Below are positions 1 to 28,501 of a DNA stretch of 64,000 nucleotides, piece by piece. The notes beneath the pieces were generated by a model. It saw nothing but the letters and a program-made list of their open reading frames with translations, was not told the origin of the DNA and searched no databases. Positions within the stretch are counted from its first letter, which is position 1. Every line of letters starts with the position of its first letter. This DNA is from a virus, in IMG/VR virus record IMGVR_UViG_3300022223_000004, positions 1 to 64,000 of that record; one strand, written 5' to 3'. The translations under genes were made by a program, and so were the position numbers.

Positions 1-410
1 TCCTCTTCATCATCCCAAGAAATGTACACATTGCAGGTTTGGTGCAATCCAGGATTATCGTCTTCCTCTCCAATGAGGATTTCATCATCATCCAAGTACG
101 TTAAAGAAAAGATTAAATTCGCTTTGTCGTCCCAGGTTTTAAACTCGGCACTGATAAAGCCCTCTTCAAAAAAGAAATAGCCTCCGTTCCTCAATGCCAG
201 CTTGACGAACCCTAATGCACCCTCTTCAGCCTTCTTCTGTACAATGTTTGGAGCAAAGTGCTCCACCATGGCAGCAATCTCTCCTGCAAGGCCTGGATTG
301 TTTGTTTGGTCTGAAAGAGCATTAACCATTTCAAACTTTTTCTCATTAGGGATTTCCATATTATCTATTATGGCCCGTGCTTGTGCTTTTAAACTCATTT
401 TATTTTCCAT
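1..410 (-). CDS. Hypothetical protein, C-terminus cut by window edge
   Basis: The frame opens with ATG at 410, preceded by the Shine-Dalgarno GGAGAAGG, and stays open to the left edge, giving 136 codons without a stop. The product starts MENKMSLKAQARAIIDN, has a helical N-terminal half and an acidic, Asp/Glu-rich end. I do not recognise the family. It is the first gene after the long structured non-coding stretch at 411-1140 and probably depends on the promoter near 1142-1171. Codon use and the ribosome site look like those of the other genes, so I take it as real. Its function is unknown. Confidence 0.75.
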   Translation of the reverse strand, partial: MENKMSLKAQARAIIDNMEIPNEKKFEMVNALSDQTNNPGLAGEIAAMVEHFAPNIVQKKAEEGALGFVKLALRNGGYFFFEEGFISAEFKTWDDKANLIFSLTYLDDDEILIGEEDDNPGLHQTCNVYISWDDEE

Positions 411-1140
411 TACCTTCTCCTGTTTGTTTAGTGGGAGTATCATCAGTGCCCGATACCACTATACGGACATACGGTCGGAGTGACCCGGCCGTTTCAACTA
501 TTAATCAATAACAGTTAAACAAAATCGGAAGCTACTTATCCTTGCCGATTTCTTTAAATGGGTTGTGCCCTTACCTTAACTCAGGTTACCTACTGGGTTG
601 TTTCATATTAATCTAGCTTGGATCATCCTACTGCCACGGTTTGTATCATCTGGGATACCTCTCGCCGTATTCATTTTATTTTGATGCAGGCTTTCCGATC
701 AGGAATGGCTACTCAACGCATCTCCATAAAATCAAGTTACTTTGATATCATACTTAACCTTATGAGTTTAGGTAGTTGTTCATCTATTGAAAGTCAGTTC
801 ACCAAACTGACCTATCATTGAATACAAACAAGTTAATCTTTTTGTCTATTGGGAAGTTTTTTTAAAATATTAAAAACCCAACTTGTTTGCATTCTTTGAT
901 CTTCATCCGTGAAGTCTCCGATGCCCCCGTGAATTTGTCTGCCCCTCCGGGTCGGGTTGCCTACTCTTAGTGTTCCGCTAGGCGTCGCGGGTCAATGTTT
1001 TGCCATTCAGGGACGTTATGAGTCTCCGCCCCGCTCGCTATCAGTTTAATATTTAACTTCGAGACGTTTTGTCTGCTGGGACTCTCGACTGAACCCATCT
1101 GATAGTTTGCATTGTAGTGTGTCTGTTTGTTCATGCTGAG
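411..1140 (-). ncRNA. Candidate long structured RNA or leader, about 730 nt
   Basis: No convincing ORF lies on either strand here. The stretch has its own promoter at its upstream end and many complementary arms: 1038-1044/1099-1105 (7 bp), 959-963/979-983 (5 bp), 901-905/910-914 (5 bp), 820-834/880-894 (15 bp with one wobble, continued inward by 851-853/877-879 and 859-865/870-876), 793-799/805-811 (7 bp), 522-528/545-551 plus 529-531/541-543, 472-478/485-491 (7 bp with one wobble), and 430-434/456-460 plus 438-441/452-455. This density of hairpins suggests a structured transcript: a large phage ncRNA or an unusually long leader for the gene at 1-410. I cannot assign it to a known RNA family by eye. 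Confidence 0.5.
820..894 (-). repeat. Long imperfect hairpin, about 25 paired bases
   Basis: The outer arms 820-834 and 880-894 match over 15 positions with one G-T wobble. The inner arms are GGG/CCC (851-853/877-879) and TTTTTAA/TTAAAAA (859-865/870-876) closing an AATA loop, with an unpaired bulge at 835-850. This is the strongest single stem in the left non-coding region. It has no terminal U-tract typical of a terminator on the transcribed strand, so a structural RNA or cruciform role is more likely. Confidence 0.6.
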
Positions 1141-1141
1141 A

Positions 1142-1171
1142 ATTATACAATGTCTAATATGACAAAGTAAA
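1142..1171 (-). promoter_or_regulatory. Sigma-70-type promoter candidate
   Basis: On the minus strand TTTACT (1171-1166) is followed 18 bases later by a perfect TATAAT (1147-1142). It points at the structured region and the gene at 1-410. A copy of the 27-bp direct repeat ends 6 bases upstream of the -35 element, so an activator or repressor could act there. This is the best promoter match I see in the window. Confidence 0.6.
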
Positions 1172-1176
1172 GCTCG

Positions 1177-1203
1177 TAAGTTATTGATTTTATTGAGGTT
1201 TTT
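1177..1203. repeat. 27-bp direct repeat, copy 1
   Basis: The unit starts TAAGTTATTGATTTTATTG and recurs at 1251-1277 with a single mismatch. The two starts are 74 bp apart, about seven helical turns. This copy abuts the promoter at 1142-1171, so a regulator-binding site is the simplest reading. Confidence 0.6.
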
Positions 1204-1250
1204 ACAAGATAGCTGAAATATTCAAAAAATCAGCGAATGCGTGATCCAGC

Positions 1251-1277
1251 TAAGTTATTGATTTTGTTGAGGTTTTT
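1251..1277. repeat. 27-bp direct repeat, copy 2
   Basis: Second copy of the unit at 1177-1203, differing at one base (G for A). It lies between the end of the small gene at 1310-1546 and the promoter. The pair may be operator sites. The sequence is unrelated to the Rep iterons at 2100-2189. Confidence 0.6.
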
Positions 1278-1309
1278 TAAAAAGTCTTAGCACTATACCT
1301 ATGTGGAAT

Positions 1310-1546
1310 CTAGTTAAAGTCTAACTCAGTCAATGAGCAATCATCATCATTATCTATCTGCCCATCTAAGTACATTTCCAAACACTGAGCGGCCAGCGTT
1401 TCGTCCTGCATCCCGAACCAAGACACGGTGTCTAAGCAATACCCGAGATACTCTGGGTCAATATCAGATATCTTATCAATTGTTTCCCCTTTATACTTTC
1501 CAAAAGTAAAAATCCAATCATTGGAAAATGCATTATCGTTATTCAT
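1310..1546 (-). CDS. Small ExoX C-terminal-like domain protein
   Basis: The 78-residue product contains a stretch (around residues 10-45, with FGKYKG followed by an acidic linker and EYLGYCL) that resembles the short C-terminal domain found after exonuclease X and as stand-alone phage proteins. The domain is probably a nucleic-acid or protein adaptor. No catalytic residues are visible. I chose ATG at 1546 because it overlaps the TGA of the upstream gene as ATGA. An ATG nine bases further upstream would put the ribosome site only one base from the start. The tail is acidic and Asn/Asp-rich. It is the last gene of the Rep-iteron block. Confidence 0.65.
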   Translation of the reverse strand: MNNDNAFSNDWIFTFGKYKGETIDKISDIDPEYLGYCLDTVSWFGMQDETLAAQCLEMYLDGQIDNDDDCSLTELDFN

Positions 1547-2070
1547 TCTTTCCATACTCCGATTTTAAATAATAAACTTTTTGATCCGTACCCAGGAAAA
1601 GAATTGTCCAAAATGTAACTCCCATTATTTATTAAATGATTGATAAAGGTTCCGAGAGTGATAGGAATATTGGTATTCTTTTCCATCGCATTCATTGCTC
1701 CAGTAAAAATCAAATTATAAAAAAGGGCTCTTTTGTTTTCTTTAAACTCCTTCCCTTCATTTTTAGTTATATCATCCAAAACAGATTCTAAAGTGGCATG
1801 GGCTATTTCTATTTTTTTATAGAGTTTTTTCCTTGTGCAAAAAATAACGTCCAAGGACCACCTGCTGGCTCCTATTCTGTTTTCAGAAATAAAAAAGTTG
1901 GAAAGGGCAGTAAAAAACCTCCGTAAACTCCTATCAATGTCAGATGAGGAAGCCTGAGGTATTTGATCAAACTGAAGCATCTGATCCAGCCCGTTTTTTA
2001 TTTGTATTTTTTCTTCTGTATTCCATGCAACCACTTCGGATAAAAGGGCCTGAACCCTGTTTTTTTCCAT
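1543..2070 (-). CDS. Hypothetical protein downstream of the iterons
   Basis: The 175-residue product is mostly helical and matches no family I know. ATG at 2070 has a very strong AAAGGAGG site. The gene starts 30 bp from the four iterons, so binding of Rep to them would probably also control this gene. Its stop overlaps the next start (ATGA at 1546-1543), giving a coupled pair. By position it could be a copy-control, partition or replication-accessory protein of the plasmid-like module, but nothing in the sequence shows this directly. Confidence 0.75.
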   Translation of the reverse strand: MEKNRVQALLSEVVAWNTEEKIQIKNGLDQMLQFDQIPQASSSDIDRSLRRFFTALSNFFISENRIGASRWSLDVIFCTRKKLYKKIEIAHATLESVLDDITKNEGKEFKENKRALFYNLIFTGAMNAMEKNTNIPITLGTFINHLINNGSYILDNSFPGYGSKSLLFKIGVWKE

Positions 2071-2099
2071 CTCAAATCCTCCTTTATTGTAAATCCAAA

Positions 2100-2189
2100 C
2101 TATCGTACCTCGGTGATAGCCACTACTATCGTACCTCGGTGACAGGACTATCGTACCTCGGTGACAGGACTATCGTACCTCGGTGACAG
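2100..2189. repeat. Four 20-bp iterons (putative Rep binding sites)
   Basis: The unit CTATCGTACCTCGGTGACAG occurs at 2126-2145, 2148-2167 and 2170-2189. A one-base variant (GATAG end) lies at 2100-2119. Starts are 26, 22 and 22 bp apart, so the last three sit on one face of the helix at two-turn spacing. Tandem repeats of this size beside a Rep-type gene and an AT-rich tract are the classic layout of an iteron-controlled plasmid origin. Function is inferred from arrangement. Confidence 0.85.
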
Positions 2190-2475
2190 TCGAAAAAATA
2201 GGAAGCAGGCTGCCTGTAGCTCCTAGCGCATTCCAACTCCTCTATAACCTTTTATAACCTTTTTATAATACCTTTTTTTCAAAAATCTTTTTCTAAATAA
2301 AAACTAAGTAAACCTAAAAAAAGGATACTTACTGGAATTTATTACTGCCTTTGGCAGCCTTCACCTATTGCTTCCTAGGACGGTTTTGCTTTTAAGCAGT
2401 GTGATCAGTCGCACGGAACTGAAAAACAACCGCTACCTATATAGGATTCACAGGTTTCTTGTGTTTGAGCACAAG
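2190..2475. other. AT-rich intergenic tract next to iterons, candidate origin
   Basis: About 285 bp without a gene. From 2225 to 2330 it is very AT-rich and holds a repeated TATAACCTTT unit (three near-copies), which fits a DNA unwinding element. Small hairpins occur: CTGCC-TTT-GGCAG around 2345-2357 and CTTGTG/CACAAG at 2458-2463/2470-2475 directly after the rep stop. I see no good DnaA box. Together with the iterons this is the best candidate for a plasmid-type replication origin. Confidence 0.55.
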
Positions 2476-3381
2476 TCAGGGTGTCTCTTTTGCTTTAATA
2501 AAAGAAACTATCTCTCCCCTTTTTGAGGAGGAAAAGGAACAGGAATAAACCTTTTTTCCTATACCTTTATTCACTTCCTGAATGGAGCTTTGAATCCTTG
2601 CTTTTATTCTAGAGGGTGGTTGGTTTGTGGCTGTAGGAAATACTATATCTGAAAAGCGTCCAATTTCCCTTTTTAAGGGCCTACTGGTCAACAAGAAATC
2701 AAAGCTTTTTAAATAGGAATATAGATTTATGGCACTTTCACTATTCAAGGATAATAGGATTTTATGCTCCAAAAAAACAGTATTCTCTCCAAATAACATT
2801 TCTAGAAAATCCATATCAAAAGAGATTTTCACTGGCCCTTTTTCTCCTTTGTTAGGAATCACAAAGCGGCTGATTACTCCAAAAACAGAGACATCCGTAC
2901 CTGCTCCGACTTTCAATTCATATTCTCCTATAAAATGTAATTGAAGACTGGTCCATTTCCAAAGAGATTTTATGACTTTATCATAGTTGGTACTTTTAGT
3001 GGAAATTCCTACCCTTTTCAGTAATGCATAGACTGAAGGAAACACCACTGTCCGCTCCTCCCCCAATGCACTGATCATTCCAGATAATACTTTTCTATCA
3101 AATTGGGTGGGCAAGTGATTAAAGAATACCTGTAATTTGAGAAAGGCTTCCACATGGCTTTTTCCATAATACCCTATGCAGTACATTCCTTTCCGTGTCT
3201 CTAATACTCTGCCTTTATATCCTCTATCTATTGGCCATTCTTTCTTTCTAGGGAACAAGATTCTTCCCTCTTCTGAAACGTCATACCTTAATAAAGGAAG
3301 CAATGGTGAAAAACATAATGGATGCTGGGCCAAAATGTTATGTAATCTGGCCGCTGGCCTTTTTCTTTCTTCTGTTTGCAT
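2476..3381 (-). CDS. Replication initiator-like protein (Rep/RepA type)
   Basis: The 301-residue protein resembles iteron-binding plasmid initiators. The second half (about residues 170-240) has the pattern of a winged-helix Rep domain, with a hydrophobic FDMDFLEMLF segment and then a SESAINLYSYLKSF helix like the 'IrLYelLks' helix of the Rep_3/RepA/TrfA group. A basic C-terminal region (KARIQSSIQEVNK) follows. ATG at 3381 has a good AAGGAGAGAG site and lies inside the end of the upstream HTH gene (44-base overlap), so the two are coupled. The downstream iterons support the assignment. The exact Rep family cannot be fixed by eye. Confidence 0.65.
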   Translation of the reverse strand: MQTEERKRPAARLHNILAQHPLCFSPLLPLLRYDVSEEGRILFPRKKEWPIDRGYKGRVLETRKGMYCIGYYGKSHVEAFLKLQVFFNHLPTQFDRKVLSGMISALGEERTVVFPSVYALLKRVGISTKSTNYDKVIKSLWKWTSLQLHFIGEYELKVGAGTDVSVFGVISRFVIPNKGEKGPVKISFDMDFLEMLFGENTVFLEHKILLSLNSESAINLYSYLKSFDFLLTSRPLKREIGRFSDIVFPTATNQPPSRIKARIQSSIQEVNKGIGKKVYSCSFSSSKRGEIVSFIKAKETP

Positions 3382-3643
3382 TTTTCTCTCTCCTTTTTTT
3401 AATGCTGATCCTAGTACCTGCGGTTTTCACTTCATGGATTCGAGCCCACTCCATTACTTTTCTTTTTTCAAATCGAACTGCCCTTCTGGCTCCAAATTCT
3501 TTTATTTCCTCATAGAACCAGGGAAGGTCTCTATTCTTTCTCCAGTTTAGTATGGTCAACCTGGCCACTCCAAAATAAGAGCAAAGGAATTCCGTATCTA
3601 CTATTTCAGGACTCCTTTTCTCAACTACCTTTTTCCTACGCAT
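3338..3643 (-). CDS. Small HTH DNA-binding protein (MerR/excisionase-like)
   Basis: The 101-residue basic protein has a helix-turn-helix near residues 15-60: EFLCSYFGVARLTILNWRK, a short wing with ARRAVRFEKRKV, then EWARIHE. This is the layout of MerR/excisionase-like or small-terminase-like winged HTH domains. The C-terminus is very rich in Lys/Arg. ATG at 3643 has AAAAGGAGG. It starts a unit just after the terminator at 3681-3710 and overlaps the Rep gene, so it is a candidate regulator or accessory factor of the replicon. Confidence 0.75.
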   Translation of the reverse strand: MRRKKVVEKRSPEIVDTEFLCSYFGVARLTILNWRKNRDLPWFYEEIKEFGARRAVRFEKRKVMEWARIHEVKTAGTRISIKKRREKNANRRKKKASGQIT

Positions 3644-3680
3644 TACTAATCCTCCTTTTTATATTGTATACCCTTTAACT

Positions 3681-3710
3681 AAAAAATAAGGGCAGTGACT
3701 GCCCTTATTT
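3681..3710 (-). terminator. Rho-independent terminator after the late operon
   Basis: Perfect 12-bp stem 3684-3695/3699-3710 with a 3-base loop. On the minus strand it is followed by a T-rich TTATTTTTT run. It ends the long structural/lysis transcript after the gene at 3734-4300. The A/T arms make it potentially bidirectional. The Rep block starts immediately after it. Confidence 0.85.
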
Positions 3711-3733
3711 ATATCCTATATTTTTGAATAAAT

Positions 3734-4300
3734 TTAATCAGTTTGTTCCTTGTCTTTACTATTCTTTTTCGTATCGGAGGTATTTGGAACAGGCAATGGA
3801 ATGTCCTGTGATACCGTTATCCAGACTTTGTTTCCTTTTTCCATGACCTCTAATACTTTTGCATACAACCTTTTATATGCTTTTCCAGAACTACCAACAT
3901 ATCCCACACCGCCAGCGTCCTCAACATTGGAAGACAATGAATCCCCTGTAAGCAGACACCCATCCGTGTGCTCATGTTTATTGCCGATATGGATATAAAT
4001 CCATTCAAACCCAGGAACATCTTGGAGCCATAACATTCCTTTATGCAGCTCTGGATACTTCTCAGAGTAGCTATCATTCATGGGACTGGCATCTTTCCTG
4101 AGTTTTACCTCATAGGTCCCTTCTGGAATTCTTGTTTTACCAGGGACCTTTACCTCCCTTTCTTCGTCTTCCAGAATGAAGCATTCGAATTTCCCATCTA
4201 AGAATAACAAAGAAAGGGTATCATCATTAGATTGGGAAAATCTGATAGCATGGAGGTGTGTCTCTCCTTTTATTTTTGTTCGGGCGGTGGTGATAGTCAT
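3734..4300 (-). CDS. DUF5675-family protein
   Basis: The 188-residue product matches the pattern of DUF5675 proteins common in phages and type VI/prophage loci: FECFILEDE, then GKTRIPEGTYEV, LWLQDVPGFEWIYIHIGN and HTDGCLL. The His/Asp/Cys cluster at HTDGCLLTG looks like a conserved active or metal site, but the family has no function known to me. I chose ATG at 4300 because AAGGAGAAAGACC precedes it; a longer TTG-started frame has no ribosome site. It is the last gene before the terminator and lies next to fibre genes, so it may be a tail or lysis accessory protein. Confidence 0.75.
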   Translation of the reverse strand: MTITTARTKIKGETHLHAIRFSQSNDDTLSLLFLDGKFECFILEDEEREVKVPGKTRIPEGTYEVKLRKDASPMNDSYSEKYPELHKGMLWLQDVPGFEWIYIHIGNKHEHTDGCLLTGDSLSSNVEDAGGVGYVGSSGKAYKRLYAKVLEVMEKGNKVWITVSQDIPLPVPNTSDTKKNSKDKEQTD

Positions 4301-4347
4301 GGTCTTTCTCCTTGGTCGTTTAATGGTGCACAAAACTTTTAAATAGT

Positions 4348-4686
4348 TTATGCGGTTGGTAAAAGGGCTTTGATATGGATTTTTCCATCAGATATAGGAA
4401 CCACATCCGAATTGGAATCGGTGACGATAGCCTGGTAGTCATAAACACCAGTCGCAACTGAGTCTAAATCCGCAGTTTGAAATTCTGCATCAATTATTCC
4501 AGAGGTTTCAGGTGCTTGTATTCCCATCACAATTGATTTTGTTAGGGTGCCGTTTTTGAGTGAGCCTATTCTAAATACTCCTGTGCCCAGGGTCAGGTTC
4601 TTAGCAATGCCATTTTCGTCCTTTACGGTAAATCGAAAAATTTTATCCGCACCTTTATACACTTCCAAATCTTGATGGATGGTCAT
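4348..4686 (-). CDS. Ig-like tail/fibre accessory protein (BppU-like fold)
   Basis: The 112-residue product has a beta-sandwich pattern (KGADKIFRFTVKDENG, then alternating hydrophobic strands and a GVYDYQAIVTDSNSDV segment) like N-terminal domains of baseplate upper or fibre-associated proteins. It follows repeat-rich and tailspike-like genes, so a structural role at the tail tip is likely. ATG at 4686 has GAGGAG. The exact family is uncertain. Confidence 0.6.
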   Translation of the reverse strand: MTIHQDLEVYKGADKIFRFTVKDENGIAKNLTLGTGVFRIGSLKNGTLTKSIVMGIQAPETSGIIDAEFQTADLDSVATGVYDYQAIVTDSNSDVVPISDGKIHIKALLPTA

Positions 4687-4687
4687 T

Positions 4688-5524
4688 TTATTTCTCCTCT
4701 ACTTTTATAAAACTGGCTGGAAGGGATTCCGTTAATAGGAATTCCCCTTGAAGTGTTTGAATTTTTATAAATTCCCCGGACAACTGCTCAATGGCTATTA
4801 CTGATCCAGCGCCTGCAACGGATAGAGTCCCTGTGGGGGATAGAAGGATTTGAGCCAATCCCTGTATCAAATCCTTGGTATCTACCACACCATTCACACT
4901 GATTAAAAGGCCCTTTGTTGCCTGTATTAAGATTTTCCCTACCGCATCCCCAGAAGGGGTTATTATTATATTTGATATCCCGTCCATTGTGCTTTTGCCG
5001 GACATTGCTCCTGAAGTTGATATGACCATACCTTCAGTGGCGGATATAGAGTCTTTGCCTGTTAATGGTGCTGAGGAAGAAAACAGTAAGGAACTAGATG
5101 CATTCAAACCCCCATCAATAGAAAGGCCCGCTATACTACTGAAAAGAATACTAGACAGGGCCTGTAGGTTATCTTTACCTGTTAATGGCGCTGAGGAAGA
5201 AAACAGTAAGGAACTAGATGCATTCAAAGAATCTTTACCTGTTGCCGCACCAGAGGAGGATAAAACCATTTCAACAACTGCGGACAAGGAATCTTTACCC
5301 GATATTGCCCCATTAGAGGAAACAATGACAGGGATATTTCCTGATAAAGAAGTGACTGCGGATAGAGGCGCTGAGGAAGATATCAGTAAAGAAGCGGAAG
5401 CAGATATAGCTCCACTGGCTGAAGGGAATTGGACAACATTCCCCACTCCAGGGAATACAATATTTGCCCCTGTTTCCTCATCTGTGACCGTGCCGACGCC
5501 CGGCAATACATAATTTTTAGCCAT
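4688..5524 (-). CDS. Repetitive fibre/surface structural protein
   Basis: The 278-residue product is built from about eight imperfect 28-40 residue repeats centred on LxASSSLLFSSSAPLTGKD, very rich in Ser, Ala and Gly and almost free of charged or aromatic residues. The N-terminus has two VLPGVG-type motifs. At DNA level 5052-5107 and 5172-5227 are nearly identical and lie 120 bp (40 codons) apart. Such repeats suggest an extended beta-structured shaft or surface coat. The start overlaps the upstream stop (TAATG). No known homologue is recognised. Confidence 0.75.
   Translation of the reverse strand: MAKNYVLPGVGTVTDEETGANIVFPGVGNVVQFPSASGAISASASLLISSSAPLSAVTSLSGNIPVIVSSNGAISGKDSLSAVVEMVLSSSGAATGKDSLNASSSLLFSSSAPLTGKDNLQALSSILFSSIAGLSIDGGLNASSSLLFSSSAPLTGKDSISATEGMVISTSGAMSGKSTMDGISNIIITPSGDAVGKILIQATKGLLISVNGVVDTKDLIQGLAQILLSPTGTLSVAGAGSVIAIEQLSGEFIKIQTLQGEFLLTESLPASFIKVEEK
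5052..5227 (-). repeat. In-gene direct repeats, 120-bp period
   Basis: The block at about 5052-5107 recurs at 5172-5227 with only two or three substitutions, including the run GAGGAAGAAAACAGTAAGGA. The period is 40 codons, so the frame is kept. Recent duplication or recombination inside the repetitive structural gene is the likely cause. Confidence 0.8.
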
Positions 5525-6851: not shown

Positions 6852-7349
6852 TTAAATCTCCATTCCTGAATAGGAATTAAATTCATTTTTTATGGACAAC
6901 ATTTTTGCCACCCTATTTCTTATTTGTGTTATTTTTTCCTCAGTCAAAGTAGGAAATAAATTTTGTAACTGGACATCTGAGATTCCATCTATCAAGGCCA
7001 TTCCGTTATATACAAACCTGTCACTAGGATCATTGATAGACACAATTCTTCTTATTAAAGAACGTAAAAGCTCCTGATTGGCATTAAATCTGGCAGGAGA
7101 GGTAAAAGGGTTTCTGCCTTCCTCAATTTCTCTAATATAGAAACACTCTTCCTGCTTCGCTAAAGAGTTTAGGGCCATTTCAGATAAAACTCCTTGAAGT
7201 GTGACTAAATTAGATACCCATAGTCCATTGATTTCGACATTGATTGATGCTCCGTCATTAGCTTGGACAGAGACCAGTGCCCTGCATTTAAACCCACCAC
7301 CATTTTGTGGCACCTCGCTAAAGACAGTTATAAGGGTAACGGTAGTCAT
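6852..7349 (-). CDS. Putative virion structural protein, unknown
   Basis: The 165-residue product has a beta-rich N-terminal half (about 1-60) and a helical C-terminal half containing RSLIRRIVSINDPSDRF. I recognise no family. The strong AGGAGG site and its place between spike and other tail genes suggest a structural protein or tail chaperone. Confidence 0.7.
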   Translation of the reverse strand: MTTVTLITVFSEVPQNGGGFKCRALVSVQANDGASINVEINGLWVSNLVTLQGVLSEMALNSLAKQEECFYIREIEEGRNPFTSPARFNANQELLRSLIRRIVSINDPSDRFVYNGMALIDGISDVQLQNLFPTLTEEKITQIRNRVAKMLSIKNEFNSYSGMEI

Positions 7350-7357
7350 AAATCCTC

Positions 7358-7915
7358 CTAAAAATGCTGTTTGCCTTCCCTAAAATTATCCTCTGCCTCT
7401 TCTGGTGTACAGGCGGCAGTAGAATAGATAGTACCATCCCTTTGAGAGTTTTTTGCCAATCGTGCATTTATCCTTAAGGCTTTCAAAAATATAGATGCCC
7501 TGTCCAACGTCATTGAAAGATGGAAATTCCCGGTAAGGAAAAAGGAAACCTGATTTTCCCGTACAGAGATGCCCATATATTCTTTCAAAAGGAAAGAAGG
7601 GTCCCGCAGGACAATAGCAGCCGACTCTTGGCTAATAGGTTTAATCGGCTTTCTAATAAATGCTTCCTCAGGATCACTAAGTATTCCAGATGCATTGATT
7701 TTTTTTGCAAGTCCAAGATTCTTCTTTGCAGTTTTTACCACTATCCGGCCCCAATGTAGGTAGCTGAATAGATCAGCATAATGGATCTTTCCTAAAAACC
7801 CGTTACTATCCATTTTTATTAAAACCAAAGGACCTTTATGATCCACCTTTATCCCATAAGGCATTGCCATGCCCTGGGTGGTGCCTTGTGTAGGTTGTGG
7901 GCGATTGTATATCAT
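7358..7915 (-). CDS. Putative virion-associated protein, unknown
   Basis: The 185-residue product has a Gln/Pro/Gly-rich N-terminus followed by a mixed alpha/beta domain. No motif is recognised and no signal peptide is present. ATG at 7915 has AAAGGAAAATAAA. It sits in the tail-fibre cluster with 8-11 bp spacing on both sides, so it is co-expressed with it. Confidence 0.7.
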   Translation of the reverse strand: MIYNRPQPTQGTTQGMAMPYGIKVDHKGPLVLIKMDSNGFLGKIHYADLFSYLHWGRIVVKTAKKNLGLAKKINASGILSDPEEAFIRKPIKPISQESAAIVLRDPSFLLKEYMGISVRENQVSFFLTGNFHLSMTLDRASIFLKALRINARLAKNSQRDGTIYSTAACTPEEAEDNFREGKQHF

Positions 7916-7926
7916 TTTATTTTCCT

Positions 7927-8370
7927 TTAGTCGATTGATATATCCAAAGCACCGGCGGCAAATTCAGGAGTGGTTCCAGTGGCTACTAAACGACTGGCAG
8001 TCAACGCTCCAAAGATTTGCAACACCCCACCACCTGTTAAAGCAAAACCAATTCCGAAGTCTGTCTCGGTCTCAGAGCCGCTAGTGGCTGTAGGGAAGGT
8101 GATGGCATTATCGTTATCTACCACTCCAGATGCCACAGTCCATTGTGCAATGGAACGGGCAACGGCTTGTCGGGCATAACTGCCATACGCAGCTTCAAAT
8201 TGGGATTGAAGTGTATGGGTTTCCAACAAGGTACCTGTATGCAGGCTAATATGTAAACTTCCTGCAACAGTGGATGGTTGTAGACCACTGGCATCCCCTA
8301 CATTGGGAAGTGCGACATTGGTAAAGTATAGATCCAACCAATCATCTTCAAATAAATCCGTAGCACTCAT
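7927..8370 (-). CDS. Tail fibre-like structural protein
   Basis: The 147-residue product follows a pattern shared by many small phage structural proteins: LHISLHTG, then YARQAVARS, WTVASGVVDN, ITFPTATSG, DFGIGFALTGG and a final beta strand pair FAAGALDI. These usually lie next to fibre genes and are thought to be fibre or decoration subunits. The start has GAAGGAGGTG, and its ATG overlaps the stop of the gene upstream (8370-8367). Confidence 0.7.
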   Translation of the reverse strand: MSATDLFEDDWLDLYFTNVALPNVGDASGLQPSTVAGSLHISLHTGTLLETHTLQSQFEAAYGSYARQAVARSIAQWTVASGVVDNDNAITFPTATSGSETETDFGIGFALTGGGVLQIFGALTASRLVATGTTPEFAAGALDISID

Positions 8371-8582
8371 TTTTCACCTCCTTCGATTTTAGTAATAATA
8401 TCTGCCAATTCTTTTGAGGTTTGTTGTCTTTTTCCCTCATCCGATTTCCTTTTAACCTCCAAATCGGCTATAGCTCTGTTTGTGGCCTTGGCTTCGTCAC
8501 TCTCAAGGTAATGCAACTTTTTGCTCACCCTATTAGCTTGGGCCATTTTTCTATCCAAGCGGCTGCCTGTTTTTTTGGACAT
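8367..8582 (-). CDS. Small coiled-coil protein
   Basis: The 71-residue product is highly charged and predicted almost wholly helical (DRKMAQANRVSKKLHYLESDEAKATNRA), with no hydrophobic segment. The TGA overlaps the next gene's ATG. It lies between the holin-like gene and fibre genes. It could be a small lysis or tail accessory protein, but nothing specific can be said. Confidence 0.65.
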   Translation of the reverse strand: MSKKTGSRLDRKMAQANRVSKKLHYLESDEAKATNRAIADLEVKRKSDEGKRQQTSKELADIITKIEGGEK

Positions 8583-8592
8583 GGTTTCCTCC

Positions 8593-9234
8593 TTATCCGT
8601 TAAGCATGTTATTTAATTTTCCTAAAAACCCTTCTGGTTGCGGGGGCCTTATAGGTTGATTGTATGCGGCCGCATACCGCATCTCCTTTTCACGGGTACG
8701 TAGGCCCATGTATCTGTTTACCCAAAGAACCAACGGTGCTATCAATGCGGCCATGCCAAGGCCAAAATTTAAAAAGGCATTTACCGTTTCTGGCTGGTTA
8801 CTATACAAAGCGGTTGCCCCTCCAATTGTCGCTATTAAAACATTGATGGCAACAATTATAAAAGAGCCTACAGCAATGAAGGGCCTCCATTGACTCCCTT
8901 TTGTTTCTGAATTATTCAAAGCTATCAGAGTCTTTGTTTCTTCCTGCTCAATTTTGGTTTCTTCCTGAATCCTCTTTGTGATTTCTTGTTGAATAAGAGC
9001 CTCCAATTCATTTTCTGATTTTTCCAATTCAACCCATTGTTCTGGTGTCATATTTTCCATCACGGCCTTGACTTCTTCCGATGGGGTGTTTTCATCAAAA
9101 GAATTACCAGTGGCTGAATTTATTTTCTCAATTATTTTTCCAGCAACACCAACTTGCGGAATAAAAGTTCCTATAACTTTCCCAATTGGTGAATTGGATG
9201 CTTTACTAAAAAATCCTAATATTTTCTTAAACAT
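8593..9234 (-). CDS. Holin of the 3-TM (GTA-holin) family
   Basis: The 213-residue product has an amphipathic N-terminus, a long charged helix (about 50-110), the SQWRPF motif at 114-119, and hydrophobic segments at about 118-142 and 152-174, ending in a basic tail. This is the layout of the 'holin of 3TMs, for gene-transfer release' family. Such holins sit in the inner membrane and let lysis enzymes reach the peptidoglycan. The adjacent gene at 9237-9668 resembles a spanin, supporting a lysis cassette. Confidence 0.8.
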   Translation of the reverse strand: MFKKILGFFSKASNSPIGKVIGTFIPQVGVAGKIIEKINSATGNSFDENTPSEEVKAVMENMTPEQWVELEKSENELEALIQQEITKRIQEETKIEQEETKTLIALNNSETKGSQWRPFIAVGSFIIVAINVLIATIGGATALYSNQPETVNAFLNFGLGMAALIAPLVLWVNRYMGLRTREKEMRYAAAYNQPIRPPQPEGFLGKLNNMLNG

Positions 9235-28120: not shown

Positions 28121-28501
28121 TTAACCTTCTGAATGTCTTGGGGTTGCCAACATAGCTTGGTACTGGTCATAATCATCTTGGGTCCAGTCTGCAAAATCCA
28201 ATGGGTGTGACTCACACCCTAAAATGGATCCTTTTCTATGAGGAAAAGGAATATGCCCACAACGGCAGGTATCTTGTTTACTTACTTCCTTTTGCCTATT
28301 AGCTTCATCTGACCGGACTCTAGTAGACTTGCAGATTGGACATTTAACACCCTTTTTATACTTTTCTGGGTGTTTTTTTATTGTGAATCTTCCTCTAGGA
28401 GTATAAGAGGAAGATTTGGCTCGCCATGCTCTTAGGTATTTCTGATAACAGTCCAGGCAATGCATTCGGTGCCTGTTGACATTAGTTCCTCCTTTAGGCA
28501 T
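28121..28501 (-). CDS. Multi-Cys zinc-ribbon-like protein
   Basis: The 126-residue product has several Cys pairs: CLDC at 15-18, CPIC near 54-57 and CRCGH near 79-83, which suggests two or more zinc knuckles. The middle is basic. The ATG at 28501 has no clear ribosome site; an AAAGGAGG lies inside the frame about 9 bases after the ATG and points to an out-of-frame ATG, so the true start is uncertain. Probable nucleic-acid or adaptor role. Confidence 0.6.
   Translation of the reverse strand: MPKGGTNVNRHRMHCLDCYQKYLRAWRAKSSSYTPRGRFTIKKHPEKYKKGVKCPICKSTRVRSDEANRQKEVSKQDTCRCGHIPFPHRKGSILGCESHPLDFADWTQDDYDQYQAMLATPRHSEG

What the first reader, a model, noticed from the sequence alone, without database searches (positions are those of the whole stretch)
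411..1140. About 730 nt of promoter-driven, densely structured non-coding DNA
The sequence shows no credible ORF, a TTTACT-N18-TATAAT promoter at its upstream end, and at least seven stems (5 to 15 bp, one long imperfect hairpin at 820-894). Large ornate phage RNAs such as GOLLD and ROOL (about 600-800 nt, prophage/phage-borne) are the closest concept in size and setting, but I see no motif that assigns this RNA to them. It could be a new large ncRNA class or a long regulatory leader.
Basis: partly seen in the sequence, partly recalled or inferred. Interest (0 to 1): 0.75.

Follow-up and report, generated by a model that had tools for sequence, protein, structure and literature searches.

The report
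Self-cutting ribozyme ends phage leader RNA
A 0.7-kb stretch without genes at the head of a phage's gene series appears to be made as a long, partly folded RNA that ends in a hammerhead ribozyme, a small RNA that would cut the long RNA away from the phage messenger RNA just before the first gene.

Summary
Window 411-1309 is non-coding in all six frames. The promoter (TTTACT-N18-TATAAT) lies on the minus strand at 1171-1142, so any RNA runs from about 1135 to 411, toward the gene at 410-3. Only the central part (964-686) folds clearly better than background. No Rfam family reaches its cut-off and no relative was found, so covariation could not be tested.

Positions 499-429 (minus strand) have the anatomy of a type II hammerhead ribozyme: the invariant core, stems I and III, a short stem II opening with a U-U mismatch (reported in natural hammerheads), and the type II hallmark pseudoknot (6 Watson-Crick pairs, loop I to 3' tail). 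In 1200 shuffles of the window, 4 chance cores arose, none with a pseudoknot above 4 pairs. Cleavage is predicted between 470 and 469, just upstream of the first gene's ribosome site. Best reading: a partly structured leader RNA of about 0.67 kb is cut from the downstream mRNA by its own ribozyme. Cleavage is untested, the Rfam score is below cut-off, and the predicted minimum-energy fold hides the ribozyme.

The parts
411..1135 (-). non-coding leader RNA, from inferred transcription start (about 1135) to the first gene
   Evidence: no coding signal in six frames; promoter just upstream; the start site is inferred, not measured
1142..1171 (-). sigma-70-like promoter TTTACT-N18-TATAAT
   Evidence: 10 of 12 matches; not above chance on its own
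1177..1277 (.). two 27-bp direct repeats (1177-1203, 1251-1277) upstream of the -35; possible regulator sites
   Evidence: found nowhere else in the record
686..964 (-). stable central domain closed by a long-range helix (964-959/691-686, 955-952/698-695, 948-945/705-702)
   Evidence: z -4.96; -3.85 on an unselected window
820..894 (-). long imperfect hairpin inside the domain (14 bp outer stem)
429..499 (-). type II hammerhead ribozyme; predicted cleavage between 470 and 469
   Evidence: criteria from PMC3088659
429..461 (-). hallmark pseudoknot: loop I 461-456 UAGUGG with 3' tail 434-429 CCACUA, 6 Watson-Crick pairs
493..519 (-). competing hairpin that hides stem II and three core bases
   Evidence: p 0.95; -8.1 kcal/mol
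417..437 (-). weak hairpin pairing the Shine-Dalgarno GGAG (420-417) with CUCC (437-434); excludes the active ribozyme fold
   Evidence: p 0.55; -2.0 kcal/mol
3..410 (-). first gene of the series, unknown family; runs on across the junction of the circular record
   Evidence: coding score 0.35 bits/codon

Best explanation
The stretch is a non-coding leader of about 0.7 kb at the head of a phage gene series. It is transcribed on the minus strand from the promoter at 1171-1142 and ends in a type II hammerhead ribozyme. Once transcribed, the ribozyme (499-429) can fold and cut the chain between 470 and 469. This frees an RNA of about 666 nt (1135-470) that carries the structured domain and ends in a 2',3'-cyclic phosphate, and leaves the downstream mRNA with a 5'-hydroxyl end 59 nt before its start codon. 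Shown by computation: non-coding, minus-strand promoter match, stable central domain, complete hammerhead anatomy with pseudoknot. Inferred: transcription, cleavage, and a stable freed RNA. The end chemistry is established knowledge of hammerheads, not tested here. The most likely use is processing of the long transcript, separating a structured RNA from the mRNA; the exclusive hairpins at 519-493 and 437-417 could let folding set both cleavage and access to the ribosome site.
For: Core letters GAAA, NUH (GUA) and CUGAUGA are all present in type II order, with closed stems I (6 bp) and III (7 of 8 positions paired). Loop I UAGUGG pairs with CCACUA in the tail, one base after stem II, 6 Watson-Crick pairs. 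PMC3088659 reports this pseudoknot as common in type II, natural stems II of only 1-2 bp, the U10.1-U11.1 mismatch in natural hammerheads, and phage intergenic examples (passages and sections read). Chance: 1200 shuffles of the 64-kb window, both strands, gave 4 cores with stems, pseudoknot lengths 2, 3, 3, 4 and none of 5 or more; 153 other fetched loci (1,671,076 bases, partly overlapping) gave 0. The real window gives exactly one, on the strand of the genes, inside its longest non-coding stretch, at the boundary with the first gene. Non-coding and promoter. Structured domain.
Against: The Rfam model gives 19.2 bits against a gathering score of 37; E is 0.47 over all families in 941 bases and 0.008 for this one family in the record. 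The usually conserved 10.1-11.1 pair is a U-U mismatch and stem II has only 3 pairs, +0.8 kcal/mol on its own. Plain folding prefers other structures: for 505-417, -21.8 against -14.3 kcal/mol for the nested hammerhead, before about -6.4 for the isolated pseudoknot helix; the hairpin 519-493 hides part of the core at p 0.95. The descriptor was written after the hit was seen. No homologue, hence no covariation. The promoter match is not above chance by itself. The related phage with a match to the Rep protein, G003, has only a 286-nt gap at this place and no descriptor hit.
Confidence: 0.68

Rival explanations
1. An ordinary long untranslated leader or attenuator of the gene series, possibly of the P4/P1/N15 antisense-immunity kind; the hammerhead letters are accidental or inactive.
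For: Leader position and promoter; a Rep3-like initiator and iterons nearby suggest a plasmid-like life; P1, P7, N15 and P4 use RNAs with complementarity to gene leaders (passage in PMC7567579); plain folding prefers non-hammerhead states.
Against: No Rfam antisense family at E up to 10. Duplex search of the leader against 13 start regions: 1 of 13 was below all 100 shuffles, the other 12 ranged from 4 to 98 of 100, so no general antisense pattern. Chance does not readily give the pseudoknotted hammerhead.
Confidence: 0.17
2. A stable large ncRNA of the GOLLD/ROOL/ICP1 sort with its own function, its 3' end made by a terminator or host RNases and not by a ribozyme.
For: Size; strong central domain; precedent of the abundant ~800-nt ICP1 transcript in an orf-less space without tRNAs (passage in PMC7567579).
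Against: No match to the Rfam models; no terminator-like site on the minus strand in 1-2500; most of the stretch is no more structured than background; the ribozyme supplies a 3' end.
Confidence: 0.09
3. A DNA element (replication origin, packaging site or spacer) whose inverted repeats act in DNA or mean nothing.
For: Inverted repeats fold well on both strands; the stretch lies near the replication genes.
Against: The iterons lie apart, at 2099-2190 beside the Rep gene, where an origin is likelier; the only DnaA-box-like site (1 mismatch allowed) in 1-4400 is at 3817, outside the stretch; the fold is better on the minus strand than on the plus (z -4.96 against -4.00); the hammerhead is strand-specific.
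Confidence: 0.06

Closest known systems
Type II hammerhead ribozyme (Rfam RF02276; PMC3088659)
   Same: Core letters, order of the stems, closed stems I and III, pseudoknot between loop I and 3' tail, phage intergenic setting
   Different: U-U at 10.1-11.1 (a reported rarity), weak stem II, score below the Rfam cut-off, a single copy at the end of a 0.7-kb leader
ICP1 abundant non-coding transcript (~800 nt; PMC7567579, passage read)
   Same: Phage, orf-less space of about 1 kb, next to a gene cluster, no tRNAs, no assigned class
   Different: No similar DNA found (ICP1 should be among the phage records, but this was not checked by name); ICP1's RNA is shown by RNA-seq, this one is not; no ribozyme is mentioned in the passages read
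GOLLD and ROOL RNAs (PMC12286853, passages read)
   Same: Phage-borne, 0.6-0.8 kb, structured, unknown function
   Different: No match to the covariance models, no tRNA neighbours, structure concentrated in one domain
Theta (HDV-like) ribozymes of gut phages (PMC10879173, passages read)
   Same: A small self-cleaving ribozyme that trims a phage non-coding RNA
   Different: Other ribozyme class; cuts beside tRNAs

Membership tests
Type II hammerhead ribozyme | Invariant core: CUGANGA, GAAA, NUH with A15.1-U16.1 | tested here: met
   446-440 CUGAUGA, 495-492 GAAA, 472-470 GUA, A492-U471
Type II hammerhead ribozyme | Stems I and III closed by loops | tested here: met
   stem I 469-464/452-447; stem III 492-485/478-471 with one C-A mismatch
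Type II hammerhead ribozyme | Stem II, normally opening with a G10.1-C11.1 pair | tested here: inconclusive
   U439-U496 mismatch then 3 pairs; the mismatch and 1-2-bp stems II occur in natural hammerheads (PMC3088659)
Type II hammerhead ribozyme | Loop I / 3' tail pseudoknot of 4 or more pairs (most type II) | tested here: met
   6 Watson-Crick pairs
Type II hammerhead ribozyme | Score over the Rfam RF02276 gathering cut-off (a curators' threshold, not a defining trait) | tested here: not met
   19.2 of 37 bits; the match stops at 5-56 of 66 positions, without stem II, and a covariance model does not score the pseudoknot
Type II hammerhead ribozyme | Site-specific self-cleavage | not testable with these tools
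   needs in vitro transcription
GOLLD / ROOL | Match to the Rfam covariance model | tested here: not met
GOLLD / ROOL | Frequent tRNA neighbourhood | tested here: not met
   no tRNA in the window or the record's end
GOLLD / ROOL | Homo-oligomeric RNA complex | not testable with these tools
   needs cryo-EM or native gels
Phage-plasmid antisense leader RNA (P4/P1/N15 kind) | Complementarity between the leader RNA and gene leaders | tested here: not met
   1 of 13 start regions beyond all 100 shuffles, no shared pattern

The most novel reading that the evidence does not exclude
A new kind of phage leader: a large structured RNA whose 3' end is made by its own hammerhead ribozyme, freed from the transcript of the gene series as a stable 0.67-kb RNA, with mutually exclusive folds (hairpin 519-493, Shine-Dalgarno hairpin 437-417) that couple ribozyme cutting to translation of the first gene, so that folding of the leader sets when the genes are switched on.
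Probability: 0.2. Interest if true: 0.82.

Novelty: new variant of a known kind. Interest (0 to 1): 0.6.

Why it matters
Bacterial and phage hammerheads are numerous, but PMC3088659 (section 6) calls their precise biological functions unclear. Here the setting suggests one: separating a long structured RNA from the mRNA of the first gene. It is a small, easily tested construct. It also shows that an RNA-family scan at default cut-offs passes over a ribozyme that the pseudoknot makes convincing.

Tried and rejected
Homologue hunts that led nowhere: blastn of 411-1300 against phages, plasmids and 26 related phage records (only 17-20-nt matches), and of 425-500 against phages; neighbour proteins in viral contigs, genome contigs and phage records; five short exact patterns in viral contigs, whose hits did not extend beyond the seed; a single-sequence covariance model of 686-964 over 84 sources, 27 handles, 101 genomes and 25 loci, which found only the window itself apart from one 47-base match at E 8.6 (L154).

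Rejected: gaps in G015 at 7009-8822, which look like genes on the other strand (by eye); the weak hammerhead score in G003 at 7493-7572 (16.4 bits), which lies within that record's match to a window gene and fails the descriptor; types I and III hammerheads in the record: none; a coding reading of the 55-aa ORF; Rfam matches at E up to 10 to snoRNAs, opuB and DUF805b, taken as chance. I first judged the hammerhead match accidental (after, where a looser descriptor gave 1 in the window and 2 in 40 shuffles) and changed my mind on reading PMC3088659.

Full report
SETTING. The window is bases 1-64000 of a 70,498-base virus record. The record ends with its own first 15 bases and the gene at 3-410 runs on across the junction, so the genome is probably circular. 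Nearly all genes lie on the minus strand. The phage has a P22-type coat protein, a family A DNA polymerase and a RecA-like protein, a DnaB-type helicase, a ParB-like protein, SbcC/SbcD-like proteins and a Rep3-like initiator just below Pfam's cut-off near four 22-bp iterons at 2099-2190. The best listed terminase match among named phages is a Vibrio phage at 48.7% identity; the best IMG/VR relative has 58%. The host is unknown.

OBSERVATION. The stretch 411-1309 shows no coding signal in any frame and holds the longest gap of the window. The promoter hexamers lie on the minus strand at 1171-1142, so the RNA would run from about 1135 (inferred) to 411 and into the gene at 410-3. Two 27-bp direct repeats found nowhere else in the record stand upstream of the -35. 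Fold energy: the whole stretch has z about -3 on both strands. The part 964-686 has z -4.96 on the minus and -4.00 on the plus strand, 0 of 200 shuffles each, but its limits were chosen from the fold. On a fixed grid the best region window reaches -3.85 on the minus strand; 1 of 89 control windows is lower, and 7 of 89 are at -3 or below. So one domain is notable and the rest is ordinary. The domain is closed by a helix of 6+4+4 pairs (964-959/691-686, 955-952/698-695, 948-945/705-702).

NO RELATIVES. Rfam gives nothing at gathering in 64 kb. No similar DNA was found in 50,697 phage records, 72,556 plasmids or 26 related phage records. G003, the only one of 26 related records with a match to the Rep protein, has like-spaced iterons but only 286 nt at the corresponding place, so the leader is not shared even there.

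THE RIBOZYME. A sub-threshold Rfam match (Hammerhead_II, 495-440 minus, 19.2 bits, cut-off 37) first looked accidental, because position 10.1-11.1 is U-U. PMC3088659 (sections 6, 7 and 8 read; other passages) reports that natural hammerheads can open stem II with exactly this mismatch, that stem II is often 2 bp and in one case 1 bp, and that most type II motifs have a potential pseudoknot of 4 or more pairs between loop I and the bases just after stem II. The window sequence has it: loop I UAGUGG (461-456) and tail CCACUA (434-429), six Watson-Crick pairs, one base after stem II. In that paper, cutting such a pseudoknot from six to four pairs lowered the rate about 20-fold. A descriptor with core and stems finds one site in the window, with a 6-pair pseudoknot, and 4 in 1200 shuffles, with pseudoknots of 2, 3, 3 and 4 pairs; in 153 other loci it finds none. 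The descriptor was written after the hit, so these figures are supportive and not a blind test. A looser form had given 1 in the window and 2 in 40 shuffles. No type I or III hammerhead lies in the record.

MECHANISM. Predicted cleavage between 470 and 469 would free about 666 nt of leader and leave 59 nt upstream of the start codon on the mRNA. Two local hairpins exclude the active fold: 519-493 (p 0.95; -8.1 kcal/mol) buries stem II and three core bases, and 437-417 (p 0.55; -2.0 kcal/mol) ties up the Shine-Dalgarno with bases of stem II and the pseudoknot. Either the ribozyme is slow, or folding order or a factor controls it. The nested energy model counts against the active form (-14.3 against -21.8 kcal/mol for 505-417) but cannot score the pseudoknot (about -6.4 as an isolated duplex) or tertiary contacts. 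The same Shine-Dalgarno element stands before two further genes of the series.

COMPARISON. PMC3088659 notes that hammerheads flank single genes or short gene blocks in prophages and suggests processing of long phage transcripts; this case fits that idea. GOLLD and ROOL are not met by sequence or tRNA context. The ICP1 transcript of about 800 nt (passage of PMC7567579) is the nearest precedent for an unclassified long phage RNA. My searches for hammerheads together with GOLLD or with long non-coding phage RNAs listed no paper on such a pairing (listings and abstract starts only, open-licence PMC library); that is not proof of absence.

VERDICT. Probably a type II hammerhead ribozyme at the 3' end of an unclassified, partly structured phage leader RNA. 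Structure and position are supported by computation; transcription, cleavage and function are inferred.

Noticed in passing
2099-2190 (and L089 7778-7848): Iterons ACTATCGTACCTCGGTGACAG (4 copies) near a Rep3-like gene; the related phage G003 has 3 iterons with another core but the same first 9 bases and the same 26/22 spacing: probably a plasmid-type origin in a phage.
   Followed up: partly
1177-1203 and 1251-1277: Two 27-bp direct repeats upstream of the leader promoter, unique in the record; possible regulator sites.
   Followed up: partly
425, and record positions 70385 and 69915: The same Shine-Dalgarno element AAACAGGAGAAGGT precedes three successive genes of the series.
   Followed up: partly
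28141-28420: Fold energy unusually low on both strands (z -4.7 and -4.1) within a small ORF (28121-28501); not examined.
   Followed up: no
4688-5524: Repetitive Ser/Ala-rich protein with recurring segments (such as SLLFSSSAPLTGKD), perhaps a tail-fibre or surface repeat.
   Followed up: no
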